Positions 11,151 through 47,190 of a stretch of DNA of 64,000 nucleotides are shown piece by piece. The stretch covers positions 4,477,743 through 4,541,742 of the forward strand of contig NZ_KZ987724.1 in NCBI RefSeq assembly GCF_003614185.1, in the 5' to 3' direction. Origin of the DNA: Paenibacillus aceti. GTDB lineage: Bacteria > Bacillota > Bacilli > Paenibacillales > Paenibacillaceae. Both the position numbers and the translations under genes were made by a program. Every line of letters begins with the position of its first letter. The stretch's first letter is position 1. The notes beneath the pieces are model-generated. The model ran no database searches, had not been told where the DNA came from, and saw only the letters and a list, made by a program, of their open reading frames with translations.

Positions 11151-11512
11151 GGGGGCGTTTATGGATTCGACGGGGGTAGTTCGAGCATGGGTAGCGGGTA
11201 GTGGGGACGCGTCCGCTTCATCAACGCTAAAGCCAATTAAACGGCAAACAACAAAACAACTTCGCATTAGCAGCTTAATAACCTGTTAGCGAGCTCCTCC
11301 CTTGCATCGCCCATGTGCCAGGATAGGGGCCCAACTTTAGTGGGATACGCTGTCCAGTCTCCGCCTGGGGCTGGCTGAAGAAGACAATCAGGCTGACCTT
11401 AGCGATAGCCGGTTACGGGGCGCTTGCTAAGGTGACATCAAAACCGTGACTACACCCGTAGACACCTATGTGGCGTTGCCTTCGGACAGGGGTTCGACTC
11501 CCCTCGCCTCCA
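11151..11512 (+). ncRNA. ssrA: Transfer-messenger RNA (tmRNA)
   Basis: One-piece tmRNA of about 362 nt. The 5' end GGGGGCG pairs with the 3' CGCCTCC to form the acceptor stem, followed by discriminator A. The canonical block TTTATGGATTCGACGG follows the 5' end, and the T-arm CAGGGGTTCGACTCCCC is near the 3' end. The tag reading frame starts at GGC 11243 and encodes GKQQNNFALAA before tandem TAA stops at 11276-11281; the first tag Ala comes from charged tmRNA. The pseudoknot region lies at about 11282-11460. SmpB and RNase R are encoded immediately upstream. Confidence 0.97.
11487..11512 (+). repeat. ssrA 3'-end att-like core, left copy
   Basis: The T-arm and acceptor 3' strand of tmRNA (CAGGGGTTCGACTCCCC then TCGCCTCCA) recurs imperfectly at 21884-21911. 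The 3' end of ssrA is a classic integration target for tyrosine-recombinase elements, so the pair may mark the ends of an old island. Confidence 0.5.
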
Positions 11513-11527
11513 TATGTAGTACCAGTG

Positions 11528-11554
11528 ACGGACACCATGTTGGTGTCCGTTTTT
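11528..11554 (+). terminator. Rho-independent terminator of ssrA
   Basis: ACGGACACCA and TGGTGTCCGT are perfect 10-nt complements around a TGT loop, followed by TTTT. Confidence 0.9.
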
Positions 11555-11672
11555 GCTTGCTCGTATTCTAAGGGGTGGGGTAAACCGCTTCGGCTCTAGG
11601 GCTTCAGGCTACTCTGACGTCGAATACGACATATTTCTGATGATGTATATGGCGGTACCTCTGTACGTAGCA

Positions 11673-11786
11673 GTTTTGATGTCAGCCAAGCAACGCCCCA
11701 TAATCGGCTTTCGCTAGAACCAGACTACTTGTCTTCTCCTGTTTGCCACAGGCGAAGATGGGACAGCATATCCCACTAAAGTGGCT
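11673..11786 (-). ncRNA. Inverted, diverged tmRNA pseudoknot-like sequence
   Basis: Read on the minus strand this segment aligns almost without gaps to 11333-11444 of the neighbouring ssrA, at roughly three quarters identity by eye. The conserved blocks are ACTTTAGTGGGATA, GCTGTCC, CGCCTG, AGAAGACAA, AGCGA, AGCCG, GGGGCG and TGACATCAAAAC, corresponding to the tmRNA pseudoknot region. I cannot find a tag frame ending in ALAA, nor a convincing acceptor stem or T-arm, in the flanks. It may be a decayed second tmRNA, perhaps brought in by a mobile element, or a separate structured RNA. The rest of 11555-12011 has no gene. Confidence 0.55.
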
Positions 11787-11845
11787 AGAAGTGTGTAGGT
11801 GGAAGACAAGAGGCATAAATAGATGTATCATCGTATAGAATGCAA

Positions 11846-11882
11846 AAAACCCAACTCTGCTAACGAAGCGGAGAAGGGTTTT
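11846..11882. terminator. Bidirectional terminator-like hairpin 1
   Basis: AAAACCC/GGGTTTT outer stem and CTCTGC/GCGGAG inner stem enclose the loop TAACGAA, with A-runs upstream and T-runs downstream, so it could work on either strand. It shares an 18-nt apical segment with hairpin 2. Confidence 0.6.
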
Positions 11883-11888
11883 AATTGA

Positions 11889-11928
11889 GTGTAGTCAGCT
11901 CTGGCTAACGAAGCGGAGAAGACTGCAC
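11889..11928. repeat. Hairpin 2 sharing the same apical segment
   Basis: GTGTAGTC/GACTGCAC forms the outer stem around CTCTGGC-TAACGAA-GCGGAG. The 18-nt string GCTAACGAAGCGGAGAAG is identical to 11859-11876, but the outer stem has a different, still self-complementary sequence. Confidence 0.5.
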
Positions 11929-12352
11929 TTATCCGTATTATTTCTGTATAATTATGATATTATGTATGTGGATGAAAGTCAAGTCGTACGTTCTTATTTT
12001 GGTTATTTGAGATGTGTACAATGATTTATAATATCTATTTCGATGAAGCAAATAAAATTGACCAGCCAGGAAAAGCGAATTCCTATTATGGTGCGTATGG
12101 CGGTAGTGAACAGACAATGATTGACATAACGCAGACGATACAACGCATGTATGAAGAACTGGGAACCAAGAGTGAATTGCATTTCCGGGAGTACAATCAT
12201 GACCAGCACTTGAAGAAATACTTCGAGGTTCTTCATTATATTATCAATCAAGATGTGAATATTAACATACTTATTGTCGATAACACAGAGGCTCATAGTA
12301 TTGCTGAACAGCTAAAATTGACAATGATGGAGCTACGTAATCTTTTCTATAT

Positions 12353-13434
12353 GACGGATTGTAAAATGAAGTGCGACACCTGCTGGAAATAAATAAAAAA
12401 GAGCCCATGGCCGGATTCGTGTAGAATGAAAGTTCCTACACCCTACATTCACACAAGGAGAATCCACCATGAACTACACACATCTTAGCATAATCGAGCG
12501 CAGCAAGCTAGAAATCCTCCACCAGCAGGGGAAAAGTGCCAGAGCGATTGCCAGAGAGCTCGGCAGACATCATTCCACCATCAGCCGTGAACTGGAGCGT
12601 CACGAGGGTCAGGAGACCTATGGTGCACAGCGAGCCCAGGAGAGCTATACCCAGCGTCGTAAAACCTCGGTTCCCGAAGGCAAGTGGACGCCGGAGCTGG
12701 CTAGAGTCATCGAAGAGAAGCTTCAGGCCACCTGGTCTCCGGAGCAGATCACACAGCGGTTTCGGCAGGAGAAGCAAGCCATCGTATGCTTTAAAACGAT
12801 CTATCGCTGGCTGTACGCGGGCCTGTTGTCCAAAGGCATCCTCACCGTTCTCAGACACAAAGGCAAGCGGCAGAAGCCTGCTGAGACGCGTGGCAAGTTT
12901 ACCGTGGGCAAGTCTATCTCTCAGCGTCCCAAAGAGGTACGGTCTCGGGAAACGTTTGGTCATTGGGAACTCGATACGGTGGTCTCAGGCCGTGGGAAAA
13001 GCAAGGGCTGTGTAGCTACGTTCATTGAGCGTAAAACGCGCTTGTACAAAGCCATTCGGATGCCAGACCGCACAGCGTTGTCTATGGAGATCGCTTTTGG
13101 TGTAGTTGCTTCTGAGTATCCTATCGGAGCCTTTCAAACCGCTACAGCAGATCGTGGCAAGGAGTTTGCTTGCTACACCAATCTGGAGGCCACCCATAGC
13201 ATACAGGTGTACTTTGCTGATCCGTATTCCTCCTGGCAACGAGGCTCCAATGAGAACGCCAACGGCCTCTTGCGAGAGTTTTTTCCCAAAGGAACGGACT
13301 TCGCTCAAGTTACGGACGAGGCTTTACACCATGCTCTTGATCTGATTAACCACAGACCACGAAAATGTCTGGGATGGAGAACCGCTCGCGAATCTTTTTC
13401 AGAGGAACTGTCGCACTTGCCTTGACAATCCGTC
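12353..13434 (+). mobile_element. Complete IS30-family insertion sequence
   Basis: A 1082-bp element. The left end starts GACGGATTGT and, after six variable bases, continues AAGTGCGACA; the right end is the reverse complement with the same two blocks, so the terminal inverted repeats are about 26 bp. The flanking ATAT at 12349-12352 and 13435-13438 is a 4-bp target duplication, and its removal restores the reading frame of the host gene. Length, repeat arrangement and transposase all fit IS30. Intact ends and an uninterrupted transposase suggest a recent and possibly active insertion. Confidence 0.88.
12469..13425 (+). CDS. IS30-family transposase
   Basis: DDE transposase of 318 residues. 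The N-terminal helix-turn-helix (LSIIERSKLEILHQQGKSAR, then ELGRHHSTISREL) is the IS30 signature. The catalytic core includes WELDTVV (first Asp), TADRGKEF (second Asp) and RGSNENANGLLREFFPKGTDF (Glu region), followed by the characteristic [23 protein letters not shown] precedes the ATG. It fills nearly the whole insertion sequence between the inverted repeats, and I see no frameshift or internal stop. Confidence 0.95.
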   Translation: MNYTHLSIIERSKLEILHQQGKSARAIARELGRHHSTISRELERHEGQETYGAQRAQESYTQRRKTSVPEGKWTPELARVIEEKLQATWSPEQITQRFRQEKQAIVCFKTIYRWLYAGLLSKGILTVLRHKGKRQKPAETRGKFTVGKSISQRPKEVRSRETFGHWELDTVVSGRGKSKGCVATFIERKTRLYKAIRMPDRTALSMEIAFGVVASEYPIGAFQTATADRGKEFACYTNLEATHSIQVYFADPYSSWQRGSNENANGLLREFFPKGTDFAQVTDEALHHALDLINHRPRKCLGWRTARESFSEELSHLP

Positions 13435-13988
13435 ATATCAAAATCCCTGAAAGATTATTCTACGGCGTGACACGTCACTTGCAGGGGCCGATAGATGTCA
13501 ACATTAAGATTGATCGCAATGATGAGTACGATACATTAGGATTGCATTCAAAGATCAAAGAGCAGATGAATGCTCATTCTGTATATCGGAGCAAAAGCTG
13601 CAAAATTGCATCTGTTGAGTCGGAAGAATCACATGAGTCCCAGTATTCTGCATTGTAAGTCATCCTTGTCAGCTTCCGACCCTTAATGTAGGTAAGTTTA
13701 TTTCTAAAGTGTTCGTGCAGAAGGAGATGCAAAGGTTGTGCTTTATGAAAATTCAGTAATAGTAGAGATCGGGTAAGCCCTTGATTAAGCCGACAACGAC
13801 TAGACAAGCCTAGGGGGATGTGAGAATATTCCAATATGTCTTATATTCTACAGTGAGGGGAATGACTCTGGTTGTCAGCTGAACTTCGCATATAATTGTA
13901 TACACAAAGAATATATAAAATCATAATATGTGGGATAGAAATAGATCAGATTTAAATAAAAATATAAATGTATCTGAGGGTGATGATT

Positions 13989-14216
13989 ATGTATGACCCG
14001 CAATTTAATGAATTAGTTTCCATTACTTCAGATGACCTATTAAACATGGATAATGACGCAGTACTCTTTGTAATAGGCGTGTTAATTGATCTTTCCTGTG
14101 ATTATAATAATCGAGCTGGATTGCAGAGAGCATACGAATTTATTAAAGAGCTTCGTCTAAGAGAGTTGACTTCTACTCAAAGAGCGATATTAGACTACTT
14201 TGAAGCAAATTATTAG
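13989..14216 (+). CDS. Small hypothetical protein, possibly truncated
   Basis: A 75-residue acidic, helical protein beginning MYDPQFNELVSITSDDLL. ATG 13989 is chosen over 13968 and 13983 because GAGGG at 13976-13980 is 8 bases upstream. The segment LSCDYNNRAGLQRAYEFIKELRLRELTS followed by RAILDYFEANY resembles a single TPR-like unit of the kind seen at the N-terminus of LA2681-like HEPN proteins, and it stops where such proteins would continue. It may therefore be a remnant of a larger gene or a stand-alone small protein. The preceding gap 13659-13988 has no recognisable gene. Confidence 0.5.
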   Translation: MYDPQFNELVSITSDDLLNMDNDAVLFVIGVLIDLSCDYNNRAGLQRAYEFIKELRLRELTSTQRAILDYFEANY

Positions 14217-14677: not shown

Positions 14678-15100
14678 TTAAATACGTTGATTATCAATTC
14701 CGAGGCTTCTTTTTAAACCTTCCTGAAGTACCTGGCTGAAATTTAGATGTTGCCGTTCAGCCTCATCATTTAACCATTTTGGTACTGTAAGAGTTTTTTT
14801 TACCGCCTTCGATTCCATAGCATCTCGAACAGTTGGCATATAAACCTGTACCTCGCAAGCTGCCTCTGTTGAATCTGCTTGCTTCAAAATGGAATCGAGT
14901 GGTGATGGATCGGGAATAGAGTCTCCATCTTGCTCCAGCACATAGATAAACCCTTCGAGCGCTTCACGCGCTGCTGAGTGCGCTTCTTCTGCCGTTTCTC
15001 CAAAAGTATTACAACCGGGGAGATCGGGAAAACGAACGGAAATTCCCTCTTCCGCTGTGTCGAGTAATGCCCAGAAGCGGTAAATGTCCTTCTTGCTCAT
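14678..15100 (-). CDS. hicB: HicB-family antitoxin
   Basis: The 140-residue protein has the partially degraded RNase H-like HicB fold at its N-terminus (FWALLDTAEEGISVRFPDLP, then GCNTFGETAEEAHSAAREAL) and a C-terminal DNA-binding region of ribbon-helix-helix type (KKTLTVPKWLNDEAER, NFSQVLQEGLKRSLG). It neutralises HicA and probably represses the operon. It is downstream of hicA on the minus strand with 7 bases between the genes, the usual toxin-first HicAB order. AGGAGGTAAT upstream of its ATG overlaps the hicA end. Confidence 0.88.
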   Translation of the reverse strand: MSKKDIYRFWALLDTAEEGISVRFPDLPGCNTFGETAEEAHSAAREALEGFIYVLEQDGDSIPDPSPLDSILKQADSTEAACEVQVYMPTVRDAMESKAVKKTLTVPKWLNDEAERQHLNFSQVLQEGLKRSLGIDNQRI

Positions 15101-15107
15101 ATATCTA

Positions 15108-15326
15108 TTACCTCCTTAGGGGAGAGCCTTGCGGCTCTACAAACCCTGCTGATTTAAGAATACTCATTTGCGTCTTGGGAGGAAAGCTTTTCTTAGGATG
15201 CGGTACCGTGACTTTCCCGGGTTTTGTCGGATGTTTGAAGTAATGATGGCTACCATGCACTCCGATTAAAAACCATCCGTCCTCTTCAAGAAGTTTTATG
15301 ATTTCTCTTGAATTATATGCTTTCAT
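15108..15326 (-). CDS. hicA: HicA-family toxin (mRNA interferase)
   Basis: A 72-residue double-stranded-RNA-binding-fold toxin. The N-terminus (REIIKLLEEDGW) and the catalytic block GSHHYFKHP, followed by KPGKVTVPHPKK and the C-terminal ILKSAGF, are diagnostic. The His in GSHH is the expected catalytic residue, so the toxin looks intact. AAGGAGGAC precedes the ATG. It is cotranscribed with hicB from a promoter at 15347-15375 that overlaps palindromic operators. Confidence 0.9.
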   Translation of the reverse strand: MKAYNSREIIKLLEEDGWFLIGVHGSHHYFKHPTKPGKVTVPHPKKSFPPKTQMSILKSAGFVEPQGSPLRR

Positions 15327-21835: not shown

Positions 21836-21883
21836 CATGAGTTTGAGTATCATGAGTGACACCAAACCGACCATGACGGTATA

Positions 21884-21914
21884 CAGGGGTTTTCGACTCC
21901 CCTCTCCTCCACCA
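21884..21914 (+). repeat. ssrA 3'-end-like sequence, right copy
   Basis: CAGGGGTTTTCGACTCCCC, then TCTCCTCCACCA. It repeats the tmRNA T-arm and acceptor end (11487-11512) with a 2-base insertion and one substitution. About 30 bases upstream, TGACACCAAACCG resembles TGACATCAAAACCG of the tmRNA pseudoknot region. It is best explained as a displaced tmRNA 3' end at the far side of an integrated element. Confidence 0.6.
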
Positions 21915-22112: not shown

Positions 22113-23429
22113 ATGCACGATTATCAGACTTTCTTGCACCACAAGTTGATTATTATCGGTGCAGGCGCATCAGGACTCATGGCTGCCGTTACAGCACGGG
22201 ATTTGGGTATCGATACCGCCATTCTAGAGGGTAACGACCGGATTGGGAAAAAAATCGCAATGACAGGTGACGGTCGTTGCAATATTACGAACGATTCCAC
22301 TATGACGGGTACGGACGACGAAGTGGTGGCCTTATCGCGCAAGTACCATAGCAGTCAGGCTGAATTTCCGTTGCCTGTGTTGCAGCAATTCGGCATCCGT
22401 CAAACCATTGATTTTTTCAATATGCTTGGATTGCCGCTTACGAAATTGAAAGAGGGCTTAATGTATCCGATGTCGCTGCAGGCTGCATCCGTGTTGGATA
22501 TTTTTGAGCTTGCTCTGGAGGAACGGAACGTTCCGGTGTATCTTAACAACAAGGTGCTGGATGTTACCGTATCGACGGATCATCCGCGATTCAAGATTAC
22601 ATGCCGCAACGAGACAGATGAGCAGCAGATTGTCTATACCAGCGAATATCTGTTTATATGTACGGGTGGCCTGACTGGCCAGAATGCGGGGACGGATGGG
22701 TCTGGGTATGTGCTTGCTCAAAACATGGGGCATGCGATGGTCGAACCTGTGCCGGCAATAGTGCAATTAAAGGTGCAATACCCATATATGAAGGCTCTAT
22801 CCGGCATCAAACTTCAGGGACGGGCCCACATCCTTGTAAACGGCGAGATCGTTCGCAGCGAAACCGGTGAAATTCATTTCGCCGATTACGGCTTTTCCGG
22901 CCCACCGATTCTTCAACTCAGTCGGATAGCCGCCGTTCATCTCTCGAGAGGGGATTCCGTGACTTTATCCATCGATTTGATGCCGAACCGCACGAAGGAG
23001 GAGGTTATCGAATTCCTGGAGATGAACTGGGGAACATTCGCACACCGACCGGTTGCGGAATCCTTCATCGGTTTTTTACACAAGAAGCTGATCCCTGTCA
23101 TGCTGAAGGAAGCGAGAATCGATCAAGAGCCAAACCTACTTTGCCAGGATCTCTCGTGGAAAACGAAAGGGGTCTTTTATAAAATATTGAAGCGTTGGGA
23201 CTTTAAAGTAACAGATACCCATAGCTTCGAGAAGGCACAAGCGACAGCCGGTGGCATCGTTACAAAAGATCTCTTCGCGGACACGTTAGAATCCAAGCTC
23301 GTGCCTGGGCTCTATTTCGCTGGCGAGGTGATGGATGTCGACGGCGAGTTCGGCGGCTACAACCTGCAATGGGCCTGGAGTTCCGGCTATGCGGCCGCGA
23401 TGGCGTTAGGGAAACATATTTTCAAATGA
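22113..23429 (+). CDS. HI0933/BaiN-family flavoprotein, copy A
   Basis: A 438-residue FAD-dependent oxidoreductase-like protein. The N-terminal dinucleotide-binding motif IIIGAGASGLMAAVTARD, the family block GNDRIGKKIAMTGDGRCNITN, the central CTGGLTGQNAGTDGSGY and the C-terminal GLYFAGEVMDVDGEFGGYN with LQWAWSSGY are the HI0933-like/BaiN signature. Bile-acid-dehydroxylating BaiN belongs to this family, but most members have no known substrate. Its stop overlaps the region where the paralogue begins, so the two genes form a tandem pair. Copy A starts about 200 bases after the tmRNA-like remnant. Confidence 0.9.
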   Translation: MHDYQTFLHHKLIIIGAGASGLMAAVTARDLGIDTAILEGNDRIGKKIAMTGDGRCNITNDSTMTGTDDEVVALSRKYHSSQAEFPLPVLQQFGIRQTIDFFNMLGLPLTKLKEGLMYPMSLQAASVLDIFELALEERNVPVYLNNKVLDVTVSTDHPRFKITCRNETDEQQIVYTSEYLFICTGGLTGQNAGTDGSGYVLAQNMGHAMVEPVPAIVQLKVQYPYMKALSGIKLQGRAHILVNGEIVRSETGEIHFADYGFSGPPILQLSRIAAVHLSRGDSVTLSIDLMPNRTKEEVIEFLEMNWGTFAHRPVAESFIGFLHKKLIPVMLKEARIDQEPNLLCQDLSWKTKGVFYKILKRWDFKVTDTHSFEKAQATAGGIVTKDLFADTLESKLVPGLYFAGEVMDVDGEFGGYNLQWAWSSGYAAAMALGKHIFK

Positions 23430-23461
23430 AGCCATTAGAAAAAGGAATGAACTCAACACAT

Positions 23462-24787
23462 ATGTATAAATCGAAATCTACAATGCACCACGAGCTGTTC
23501 ATTATCGGTGCAGGTGCTTCTGGTCTTATGGCGGCCGTTACCGCGCGAGACCGAGGGGTCGATGTCGCGATCATTGAAGGCAACGACCGGGTAGGCAAGA
23601 AGGTACTAACGACCGGCAACGGTCGCTGTAACATTACGAACCAATCCACGGCGAAGGGGACGGACGAAGCGGTCGCACTATCGCATAAATATCACAGCAA
23701 TCAAATGGAATTCCCGCTGCCTGTGCTGCAGCAATTCGGCGTCCGGCAAACCGTCGATTTCTTCAACGCACTCGGCCTTCCGTTGATCGCCGTGGAGAAT
23801 GGCCGGATGTATCCGATGTCGCTGCAGGCAGCATCTGTATTGGAGGTTTTCCGGATTGCGCTAGAGGATCGGTATGTTCCGATACACTTCAAAACCAAAG
23901 TATTGGACGTTACCGTATCGAAGGGACATCCGCGATTCACAATTTTGTGTCAAACGGAAGCAGAGGGAGAGGTCGTGTATACCAGTGATTATCTCTTTAT
24001 CTGTACGGGCGGCCTTACCGCACCAAAGACAGGAACGGATGGATCTGGTTATACGCTTGCCCAGCGACTGGGACACACACTGATCGATCCTGTACCTGGG
24101 ATCGTACAATTGAAGCTGCAATATCCGAACCTAAAGGAGTTGTCCGGCGTCAAATTCGAGGGATTGGGCCATATCATCGTCAACGGCGAAGTTATCCGCA
24201 GCGAATATGGGGAAATCCTGTTTACAGACTACGGCGTCTCCGGCCCACCGATTCTCCAGCTAAGCCGGAAGGCTGCGTATCAGCTCAAAAGAGGAGAAAC
24301 AGTAACCTTATCGCTTGATTTGATGCCAGACCGCACGGAGGAAGAAGTCGTCGATTTTCTGGATACGCATTGGGGAACGTTCGGATACCGGACGGTTGCA
24401 GCTTCCTTGATCGGTATCTTTAACAAGAAGCTGATCCCTATTCTGTTGAAAGAGGCGGGGATCGACCAAGAGCCGAACCTCCTATGTCAGGATTTATCGT
24501 GGAAAACCAAGAAAATATTGTGCCAACTCATAAAGCGTTGGAAATTTATCGTAACTGATACCAATGGCTTCACGAATGCACAAACGACGGCCGGCGGGAT
24601 CGATACAACAGAGTTAAGAGAAGGAACGCTAGAATCGAAGCTAGTACCTGGACTTTATTTTGCCGGTGAAGTGATGGATGTGGATGGAGATTGCGGTGGC
24701 TATAACCTGCAATGGGCCTGGAGCTCCGGCTATTCCGCCGCGACGGCACTTGCTGATCAACTTACAGGCATCATGGAAAAAGATTGA
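23462..24787 (+). CDS. HI0933/BaiN-family flavoprotein, copy B
   Basis: A 441-residue paralogue of the preceding gene, with the same motifs (IIGAGASGLMAAVTARD, GNDRVGKKVLTTGNGRCNITN, GLYFAGEVMDVDG, YNLQWAWSSGY). The two are similar along their full length by eye. The frame is open to 23369; ATG 23426 would overlap the upstream stop as ATGA, but ATG 23462 gives an N-terminus that aligns residue for residue with copy A, so it is preferred. Two complete, diverged tandem copies point to an old duplication with retained function. A terminator follows at 24870. Confidence 0.88.
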   Translation: MYKSKSTMHHELFIIGAGASGLMAAVTARDRGVDVAIIEGNDRVGKKVLTTGNGRCNITNQSTAKGTDEAVALSHKYHSNQMEFPLPVLQQFGVRQTVDFFNALGLPLIAVENGRMYPMSLQAASVLEVFRIALEDRYVPIHFKTKVLDVTVSKGHPRFTILCQTEAEGEVVYTSDYLFICTGGLTAPKTGTDGSGYTLAQRLGHTLIDPVPGIVQLKLQYPNLKELSGVKFEGLGHIIVNGEVIRSEYGEILFTDYGVSGPPILQLSRKAAYQLKRGETVTLSLDLMPDRTEEEVVDFLDTHWGTFGYRTVAASLIGIFNKKLIPILLKEAGIDQEPNLLCQDLSWKTKKILCQLIKRWKFIVTDTNGFTNAQTTAGGIDTTELREGTLESKLVPGLYFAGEVMDVDGDCGGYNLQWAWSSGYSAATALADQLTGIMEKD

Positions 24788-46626: not shown

Positions 46627-47190
46627 GTGCAATATGTAAATCCGATTCGAGACGTTGAGACCATTCAAGCGATGAAAGAGGAGTTGAGGAAGAGTTCGAT
46701 CAGAGACCTGCTACTGTTTGTGCTAGGGATCAATACAGGAATCAGCCTTCTGGATTTGCTGCATCTCACGGTGCAGGATGTATGGGATGGCCAGAGTGCG
46801 AAGCAGTACCTCTATATTGAGGATGAGAGGACAGGGGAAGTAAAGGCTTACTACCTTAACGGTAAAATCGCAGAAATTTTAGTCGAGTATTTGTCCAGCA
46901 TCGATTGGAAGGCAGAGGATTATCTCTTCAAGTCGAAGAAGGACGCTCGGCCCATTACTCGTCAGCAGGTCTATCGGATTATTAATCACGTAGCCAGGGA
47001 GGTAGGAATTTCAGAGAAAATCGGGGCGCATACACTGAGGAAGACCTTCGGTTATCATGCGTATCATAAGGGTATTGCCATTTCCATCATCAAGTCGATC
47101 CTGAATCATCATTCCACAGCGGAGACGTTAAGATATTTAGGCGTCGAGAAAAGCGAGCAACAGCCGATCAAGGTAGATGTGAACTTATAA
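46627..47190 (+). CDS. Small tyrosine-recombinase-like protein lacking the first catalytic Arg
   Basis: A 187-residue protein consisting only of the catalytic domain of the tyrosine recombinase/phage integrase family. HTLRKTFGYHAY (HxxR), LNHHSTAETLRYLG (His and Tyr nucleophile) are intact. The first catalytic Arg is expected in TGLRxxE/DLL, but here the block reads NTGISLLDLLHL, so that Arg appears to be replaced. GTG 46627 follows GGAGGG. Without an N-terminal core-binding domain and with the altered active site it may be inactive or have a non-recombination role. No attachment site is evident nearby. Confidence 0.8.
   Translation: MQYVNPIRDVETIQAMKEELRKSSIRDLLLFVLGINTGISLLDLLHLTVQDVWDGQSAKQYLYIEDERTGEVKAYYLNGKIAEILVEYLSSIDWKAEDYLFKSKKDARPITRQQVYRIINHVAREVGISEKIGAHTLRKTFGYHAYHKGIAISIIKSILNHHSTAETLRYLGVEKSEQQPIKVDVNL

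What the first reader, a model, noticed from the sequence alone, without database searches (positions are those of the whole stretch)
11673..11786. Inverted, diverged tmRNA pseudoknot-like sequence directly downstream of ssrA
The minus strand aligns over about 114 nt with at most one gap to the pseudoknot region of the adjacent tmRNA (11333-11444), at roughly 75% identity by eye. Shared blocks include ACTTTAGTGGGATA and TGACATCAAAAC. An opposite-strand second tmRNA is not a local tandem duplicate. It suggests a foreign tmRNA carried by an element, or reuse of this fold in another RNA. Transcripts from this strand would also be complementary to ssrA in the matching blocks only if read antisense.
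Basis: seen in the sequence. Interest (0 to 1): 0.85.

Follow-up and report, generated by a model that had tools for sequence, protein, structure and literature searches.

The report
Dead inverted tmRNA fragment beside ssrA
A broken, backwards piece of the tmRNA gene sits next to the intact gene, most likely as a passenger of small pieces of mobile DNA, some with likely phage-defence genes, that collect at this spot in Paenibacillus relatives; it looks like a fossil and not a second working tmRNA.

Summary
In detail: minus strand 11782-11673 matches the pseudoknot 2-4 part of the adjacent tmRNA at 87 of 111 columns. A second tmRNA or a reused fold is not supported. tRNA-like and mRNA-like parts are not detected, and Rfam gives no tmRNA hit there. 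In 12 related copies pseudoknot pairs are broken as often as random substitution predicts (64 seen, 61.7 expected); among tmRNAs 4 are broken where 184.3 are expected. The fragment is half of a ~270-nt unit whose other half, a ~120-bp conserved tail, abuts the ssrA terminator. The tail was detected in 22 of 296 family genomes, 8 of 19 genera, each time downstream of ssrA on the opposite strand. Three carriers from different genera, with smpB fourfold sites 66-72% different, share unit and a DUF3800 cargo gene at 71-98% identity per 60-bp window, which points to horizontal transfer. Best reading: a decayed ssrA fragment in the ssrA-proximal end of islands that move between Paenibacillaceae. The tail is the constrained part; its job is unproven, perhaps an attachment arm. 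Transfer is supported for that trio only, and no circular form was found.

The parts
11151..11515 (+). Intact host ssrA (tmRNA), tag GKQQNNFALAA
   Evidence: ARAGORN; Rfam RF00023 199 bits
11527..11551 (+). ssrA intrinsic terminator; the conserved tail abuts it from the other side
   Evidence: 11 pairs, T run on the + strand
11546..11664 (-). Conserved tail: ssrA-proximal end of the unit; no tmRNA homology above shuffles, no consensus RNA structure, changes less than the neighbouring noncoding island DNA
11673..11782 (-). Inverted decayed copy of the tmRNA pseudoknot 2-4 region (tmRNA model 184-300)
11783..12011 (.). Island spacer with two hairpins sharing CTAACGAAGCGGAGAAG, alignable with carriers G059 and G193 and in part with G052
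12012..12392 (+). 5' piece of a DUF3800 cargo gene (318 aa in G059 and G193)
12469..13425 (+). IS30-type transposase gene (HTH_38, rve; the IS30 label is recalled) lying inside the DUF3800 region
21883..21911 (+). Same-strand relic of the ssrA 3' end (model 336-362), probable far boundary of the island; followed by a terminator-like stretch resembling the one behind ssrA in G012
   Evidence: weak alone (E 0.04); sequence, comparison sequence (by eye)

Best explanation
It is a fossil: a decayed, reverse-oriented fragment of an ssrA gene (pseudoknots 2-4) carried inside the ssrA-proximal end of small genomic islands that sit next to ssrA in Paenibacillaceae and move between genera. Shown: homology, loss of the pairing, fixed convergent position, differing cargo, same-strand ssrA 3' relics downstream. 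Supported for one trio of carriers: horizontal transfer of unit plus cargo. Inferred: the fragment was captured once or a few times when an island excised or inserted imprecisely at ssrA. Inferred and less sure (about 0.4): the tail beside it is the working part, a protein-binding arm of an attachment site used by a recombinase acting in trans, since no recombinase gene was seen in the window's island. The pseudoknot piece is a passenger.
For: Pseudoknot pairs in 12 inverted copies: 64 broken, 61.7 expected at random; 38 tmRNA comparisons: 4 broken, 184.3 expected (17 of 20 candidate pairs used, three dropped because under 85% of tmRNAs form them). In the first tree all four inverted copies then known separate from the genus ssrA rows at 86%. 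Five tails and four upstream flanks show no homology to the window's tmRNA ends above shuffles. Transfer: smpB fourfold sites differ 36/50, 35/53, 35/53 among G000, G059, G193 (three genera), but the shared DUF3800 gene differs 6/29, 10/26, 26/97 and 60-bp windows over the first 840 bp are 0.71-0.98 identical (for G000 only a 126-aa fragment of the gene was compared). Within the unit the pseudoknot piece changes like the neighbouring spacer (14/106 v 20/170, 19/106 v 32/169, 13/106 v 17/169) and faster than the tail (4/107, 9/110, 5/107; Fisher p 0.014, 0.042, 0.052); the tail is below fourfold sites in all three pairs (p 0.007, 0.0004, 9e-6). Tail in 22 of 296 genomes, all 22 downstream of and opposite to ssrA, 16 within about 270 bp (coordinates). 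Same-strand ssrA 3' relics among the cargo. Pseudoknot piece absent while both flanks remain in G052.
Against: Shared cargo, the direct sign of transfer, was measured for G000/G059/G193 only; for G013, G048 and G039 the unit's conservation (G013-G048 80.9% over 324 columns, G048-G039 74.9% over 394) is not explained by a demonstrated transfer. In two of three island pairs the pseudoknot piece differs less than fourfold sites (Fisher p 0.034, 0.012; third 0.376), so weak constraint is not excluded. The pair test uses the closest tmRNA as stand-in parent, and its control is helped by choosing pairs that tmRNAs form; the copy-against-chance comparison is not affected by that. Four of 37 RNAalifold pairs show a two-sided change. 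Some copies resemble their own host's ssrA most or nearly so (G295, G219, G224, G144), and G295's copy groups with its host gene at 83%, which suggests more than one capture or local conversion; a single origin is not rejected (AU p 0.254). No circular form was found.
Confidence: 0.8

Rival explanations
1. A functional non-tmRNA RNA that reuses the tmRNA pseudoknot fold, transcribed from the minus strand and ending at the ssrA terminator.
For: Unit found in at least 12 of 296 genomes; pseudoknot pieces 74-87% identical among G000, G013, G048 (56-65% with G039) although smpB synonymous sites differ at 62-74%. Four of 37 predicted pairs show a two-sided change.
Against: Pairs broken at the random rate; RNAalifold covariation term +1.94, unfavourable, for four units, and 3 pairs without two-sided change for 14 tails; none of eight single-sequence folds stands clearly below its shuffles (z -1.52 to 0.84); by eye the sequence upstream of the pseudoknot piece is not alignable between carrier groups, so no shared promoter is seen; transfer explains the high identity in one trio.
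Confidence: 0.04
2. A foreign, once complete tmRNA gene delivered by a phage or integrative element.
For: Mobile setting; copies in several genera.
Against: No trace of tRNA-like or tag parts; no match to the window's unit in the phage and plasmid collections and one match to a tail pattern in viral contigs that looks like chance; the copies fall among or beside Paenibacillaceae ssrA (no distant tmRNAs were in those trees).
Confidence: 0.03
3. An inverted repeat that controls ssrA: plus-strand read-through RNA folds back on the tmRNA pseudoknots.
For: The arms are about 78% alike in the window; in four of 12 copies (G144, G224, G219, G295) at most three of the other 37 tmRNAs are as similar as the host's own.
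Against: For 6 of 12 copies eight or more of the other 37 tmRNAs are at least as similar as the host's own; the ssrA terminator lies between the arms.
Confidence: 0.04
4. The tail is an ancestral ssrA-flanking regulatory or RNA element of the chromosome, and islands merely insert around it.
For: Tail convergent with ssrA in all 22 carriers and directly at it in 16, in 8 of 19 genera, with diverged copies in G018, G009, G004.
Against: No tail at E 1e-5 in 274 of 296 genomes (strict filters can miss weak ones); it is shared together with cargo by G000, G059, G193; no RNA structure; stops or indels in the tail frames.
Confidence: 0.2

Closest known systems
tmRNA gene fragments and pseudogenes formed by genomic-island integration (PMC4131195, passages seen)
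   Same: A partial ssrA piece besides the working gene, attributed to islands that insert at ssrA
   Different: Here the piece is inverted, lacks the gene's 3' end, and is part of a conserved unit shared by several genera
ssrA-specific genomic islands of Dehalococcoides (PMC3146451, passages seen)
   Same: Tandem islands at ssrA with direct repeats of the ssrA 3' end and varied cargo
   Different: There the integrase gene dsiB overlaps attL at its 3' end; here the ssrA-proximal end carries a tail and a dead tmRNA fragment, and no integrase was seen in the window's island
tmRNA (Rfam RF00023)
   Same: Homologous to the pseudoknot 2-4 stretch
   Different: No tRNA-like domain or tag frame detected, pairs not kept, no covariance-model hit

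Membership tests
tmRNA (RF00023) | tRNA-like domain formed by both gene ends | tested here: not met
tmRNA (RF00023) | mRNA-like part with tag reading frame | tested here: not met
   profile match starts after the tag, at model 154-184 depending on the copy
tmRNA (RF00023) | pseudoknot helices kept through substitution | tested here: not met
   64 broken v 61.7 expected; control tmRNAs 4 v 184.3
tmRNA (RF00023) | covariance-model score above the family cut-off | tested here: not met
   for the window, for G144; other carriers not scanned with Rfam for the unit
ssrA gene fragment left by island integration | sequence homology to part of ssrA beside an intact ssrA | tested here: met
ssrA gene fragment left by island integration | same strand as ssrA and carrying the gene's 3' end | tested here: not met
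   the finding is inverted and lacks positions 301-363; ordinary same-strand relics occur nearby in relatives
ssrA-specific genomic islands | insertion at the ssrA 3' end with a direct repeat at the far boundary | tested here: inconclusive
   clear relics in several relatives; for the window itself the repeat at 21883-21911 is weak (E 0.04)
ssrA-specific genomic islands | own integrase | tested here: not met
   none of the 12 shown of 13 Phage_integrase matches of G000 lies in the island (nearest in the window about 46663-47151); none of its 7 Resolvase matches lies in the window; ORF lists read by eye
ssrA-specific genomic islands | excision as a circle | not testable with these tools
   needs PCR or reads

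The most novel reading that the evidence does not exclude
The ~270-nt unit is a fixed docking end of a cassette-like system: single cargo modules, some of them defence genes, are swapped at a near-constant junction (the start of the inverted pseudoknot piece) beside ssrA, by a recombinase supplied in trans or by homologous recombination through ssrA-derived sequence, with same-strand ssrA 3' relics marking earlier modules.
Probability: 0.2. Interest if true: 0.65.

Novelty: new variant of a known kind. Interest (0 to 1): 0.38.

Why it matters
It shows how a convincing 'second tmRNA' in raw sequence can be a gene fossil, and gives a countable test (pair breakage against a substitution null, with real tmRNAs as control) that separates the two. 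It also marks ssrA as a site where small islands, some carrying defence-like genes, accumulate in Paenibacillaceae, with a conserved end that can be used to find them.

Tried and rejected
Tail as a hidden tRNA-like domain: no homology above shuffles (against the window's tmRNA only). Tail as protein-coding: over 53 alignment columns of 14 tails, the plus-strand frame that reads ..GSRASGFSDVEYDIFLM.. is stopped in 4 of 14, the other two plus-strand frames in 13 and 14, the minus-strand frames in 6, 12 and 1 of 14; in the minus-strand frame open in 13 of 14 the third codon position varies least (12 against 20 and 19), so I do not call it coding. I briefly considered a type I toxin-like peptide there (recalled resemblance only) and dropped it. 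Antisense control of ssrA: host matching mixed. Phage, plasmid and viral sources: no match or one chance match. The first impression that slow evolution meant RNA function was overturned for one trio by the island comparison. Copy-to-copy pair tests were too small to add anything (7 broken, 8.4 expected over five comparisons, one pair tested both ways). Rows dropped: three tmRNAs lacking the anchor strings (L020, L024, L027); identical rows collapsed. The R1 and R2 family searches use strict filters and one search's listing is cut, so carrier counts are lower bounds. PADLOC was given 9 cargo proteins: 5 matched, 4 did not.

Full report
Observation. ssrA is at 11151-11515 (+). The reverse complement of 11673-11782 aligns with tmRNA 11334-11444, 87 of 111 columns identical, one gap; under the more permissive scoring 94 of 122, score 62 against at most 15 in 1000 dinucleotide shuffles. 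In 500-base windows of the whole 64 kb, apart from ssrA itself and windows overlapping this site, the next best score is 21, at the relic near 21883.

What is missing. Rfam at E up to 5 over 11513-12010 gives only a sub-threshold isrD match, and nothing for the carrier G144. A profile of genus tmRNAs matches only positions 184-300 here, 154-300 in G013, 156-299 in G048 and 154-295 in G039, that is pseudoknots 2-4 (numbering recalled from the tmRNA literature). Beyond that the flanks show no tmRNA homology above shuffles.

The unit. The match is one half of a ~270-nt unit; the other half is a ~120-bp tail that runs up to the ssrA terminator. A tail-only model (R2) finds 22 of 296 genomes at E 1e-5, 8 of 19 genera, one copy each. 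All 22 lie downstream of ssrA and on the opposite strand; 16 within about 270 bp, six displaced by 0.85 to 20.5 kb (G214, G048, G051, G009, G039, G052) (coordinates).

Mobile setting. The genes beside the unit vary: DUF3800 in G000 (broken), G059 and G193; one 579-585-aa protein in G144 and G295; an AbiLi/AbiLii pair in G013 (303 and 88 bits); a MkoC (Mokosh) homologue at 1163.6 bits in G224; a weak DzbB match (33 bits) in G193 (5 of 9 proteins given to PADLOC matched). Same-strand relics of the ssrA 3' end, of different lengths, lie downstream in G059, G193, G224, G111, G219, G295, G051, G004, G012 and G018. By eye the sequence right behind ssrA varies widely among the loci printed. This resembles the tandem islands at ssrA described in Dehalococcoides (PMC3146451, passages).

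Horizontal or selected? smpB synonymous sites between carriers are near saturation (pS 0.62-0.74 among G000, G013, G048), yet the pseudoknot pieces are 74-87% identical among these three and whole units about 81-82%, which at first suggested strong selection. The island comparison gives another reason for one trio: G000, G059 and G193 belong to three genera (smpB fourfold differences 36/50, 35/53, 35/53) but share unit and DUF3800 gene, whose fourfold sites differ only 6/29, 10/26, 26/97. Inside it the pseudoknot piece diverges like the adjacent spacer and about two to three and a half times more than the tail (Fisher p 0.014, 0.042, 0.052); it is below fourfold sites in two of three pairs. 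For G013, G048 and G039 no shared cargo was measured, so transfer is not shown there.

Structure test. For 17 helix pairs formed by at least 85% of 38 tmRNA rows, each inverted copy was compared with its closest tmRNA and broken pairs were counted against the same number of randomly placed substitutions. Twelve copies: 64 broken, 61.7 expected. The same test on 38 tmRNAs, each against a randomly chosen tmRNA of 68-82% identity: 4 broken, 184.3 expected. The control is helped by picking pairs that tmRNAs form; the comparison of copies with chance is not. RNAalifold gives an unfavourable covariation term for four units, with two-sided changes at 4 of 37 pairs, and three pairs without any for 14 tails. 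Eight single-sequence folds have z between -1.52 and 0.84. The tmRNA fold is not kept.

Origin. In the first tree the four inverted copies separate from the genus ssrA rows at 86%. With 12 copies, six form a clade (79%), G224 and G219 pair (99%), G295's copy joins its host's ssrA (83%) and the rest are unresolved; one common origin is not rejected (AU p 0.254). In G052 the flanks remain but the pseudoknot piece is absent, so the tail does not need it. G144 and G295 share the 579-585-aa gene at about 95% but only 55-72% over the first 240 bp behind ssrA; the change falls inside or at the start of the pseudoknot piece, so cargo was exchanged near that junction.

Mechanism, with likelihoods. That the pseudoknot piece is a non-functional passenger: about 0.8. 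That the tail is a recombination or attachment arm: about 0.4, from its position, conservation and sharing with cargo, with no direct proof. Among listed Phage_integrase hits in 16 of the 22 tail carriers none is within 20 kb of the tail, but that listing is cut. Resolvase hits do lie near two units: one with an internal stop about 2 kb from G295's, and three on G144's contig 7-11 kb away.

Literature. Three full-text searches (15 of 252, 11 of 11 and 12 of 21 papers listed) showed, by titles and abstract openings, no paper on an inverted ssrA fragment in Paenibacillus. Fragments of tmRNA genes made by island integration are mentioned in PMC4131195 (passage). Other papers were seen in search listings only.

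Noticed in passing
window 12012-13658: A DUF3800 cargo gene is split by an IS30-type transposase gene; a further piece of it is read in the ORF 13365-13658. 318-aa relatives sit in the same place in G059 and G193.
   Followed up: partly
window 14678-15326: HicB/HicA toxin-antitoxin pair on the minus strand inside the probable island (Pfam).
   Followed up: no
window 13968-14216: 82-aa ORF; the DNA here is 75% identical over 272 columns to a stretch of the 514-aa gene that lies next to the unit in G039.
   Followed up: partly
window 11844-11935: Two neighbouring hairpins with the shared sequence CTAACGAAGCGGAGAAG, alignable in G059 and G193 and in part in G052.
   Followed up: no
window 22113-24787: Two adjacent ORFs (438 and 472 aa) that look like paralogous flavoproteins by eye, just beyond the ssrA relic; no family search was made.
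   Followed up: no
L094:13807-14117: G193 holds a long same-strand ssrA relic (model 38-347, 323 bits) 5.8 kb behind the intact gene.
   Followed up: no
L030:1979-2162: G012 holds a same-strand 3'-half ssrA relic (model 180-363) followed by CCA, about 4 kb behind ssrA.
   Followed up: partly
L096:10066-13509: Mokosh MkoC homologue (1163.6 bits in PADLOC) between ssrA relics in G224.
   Followed up: partly
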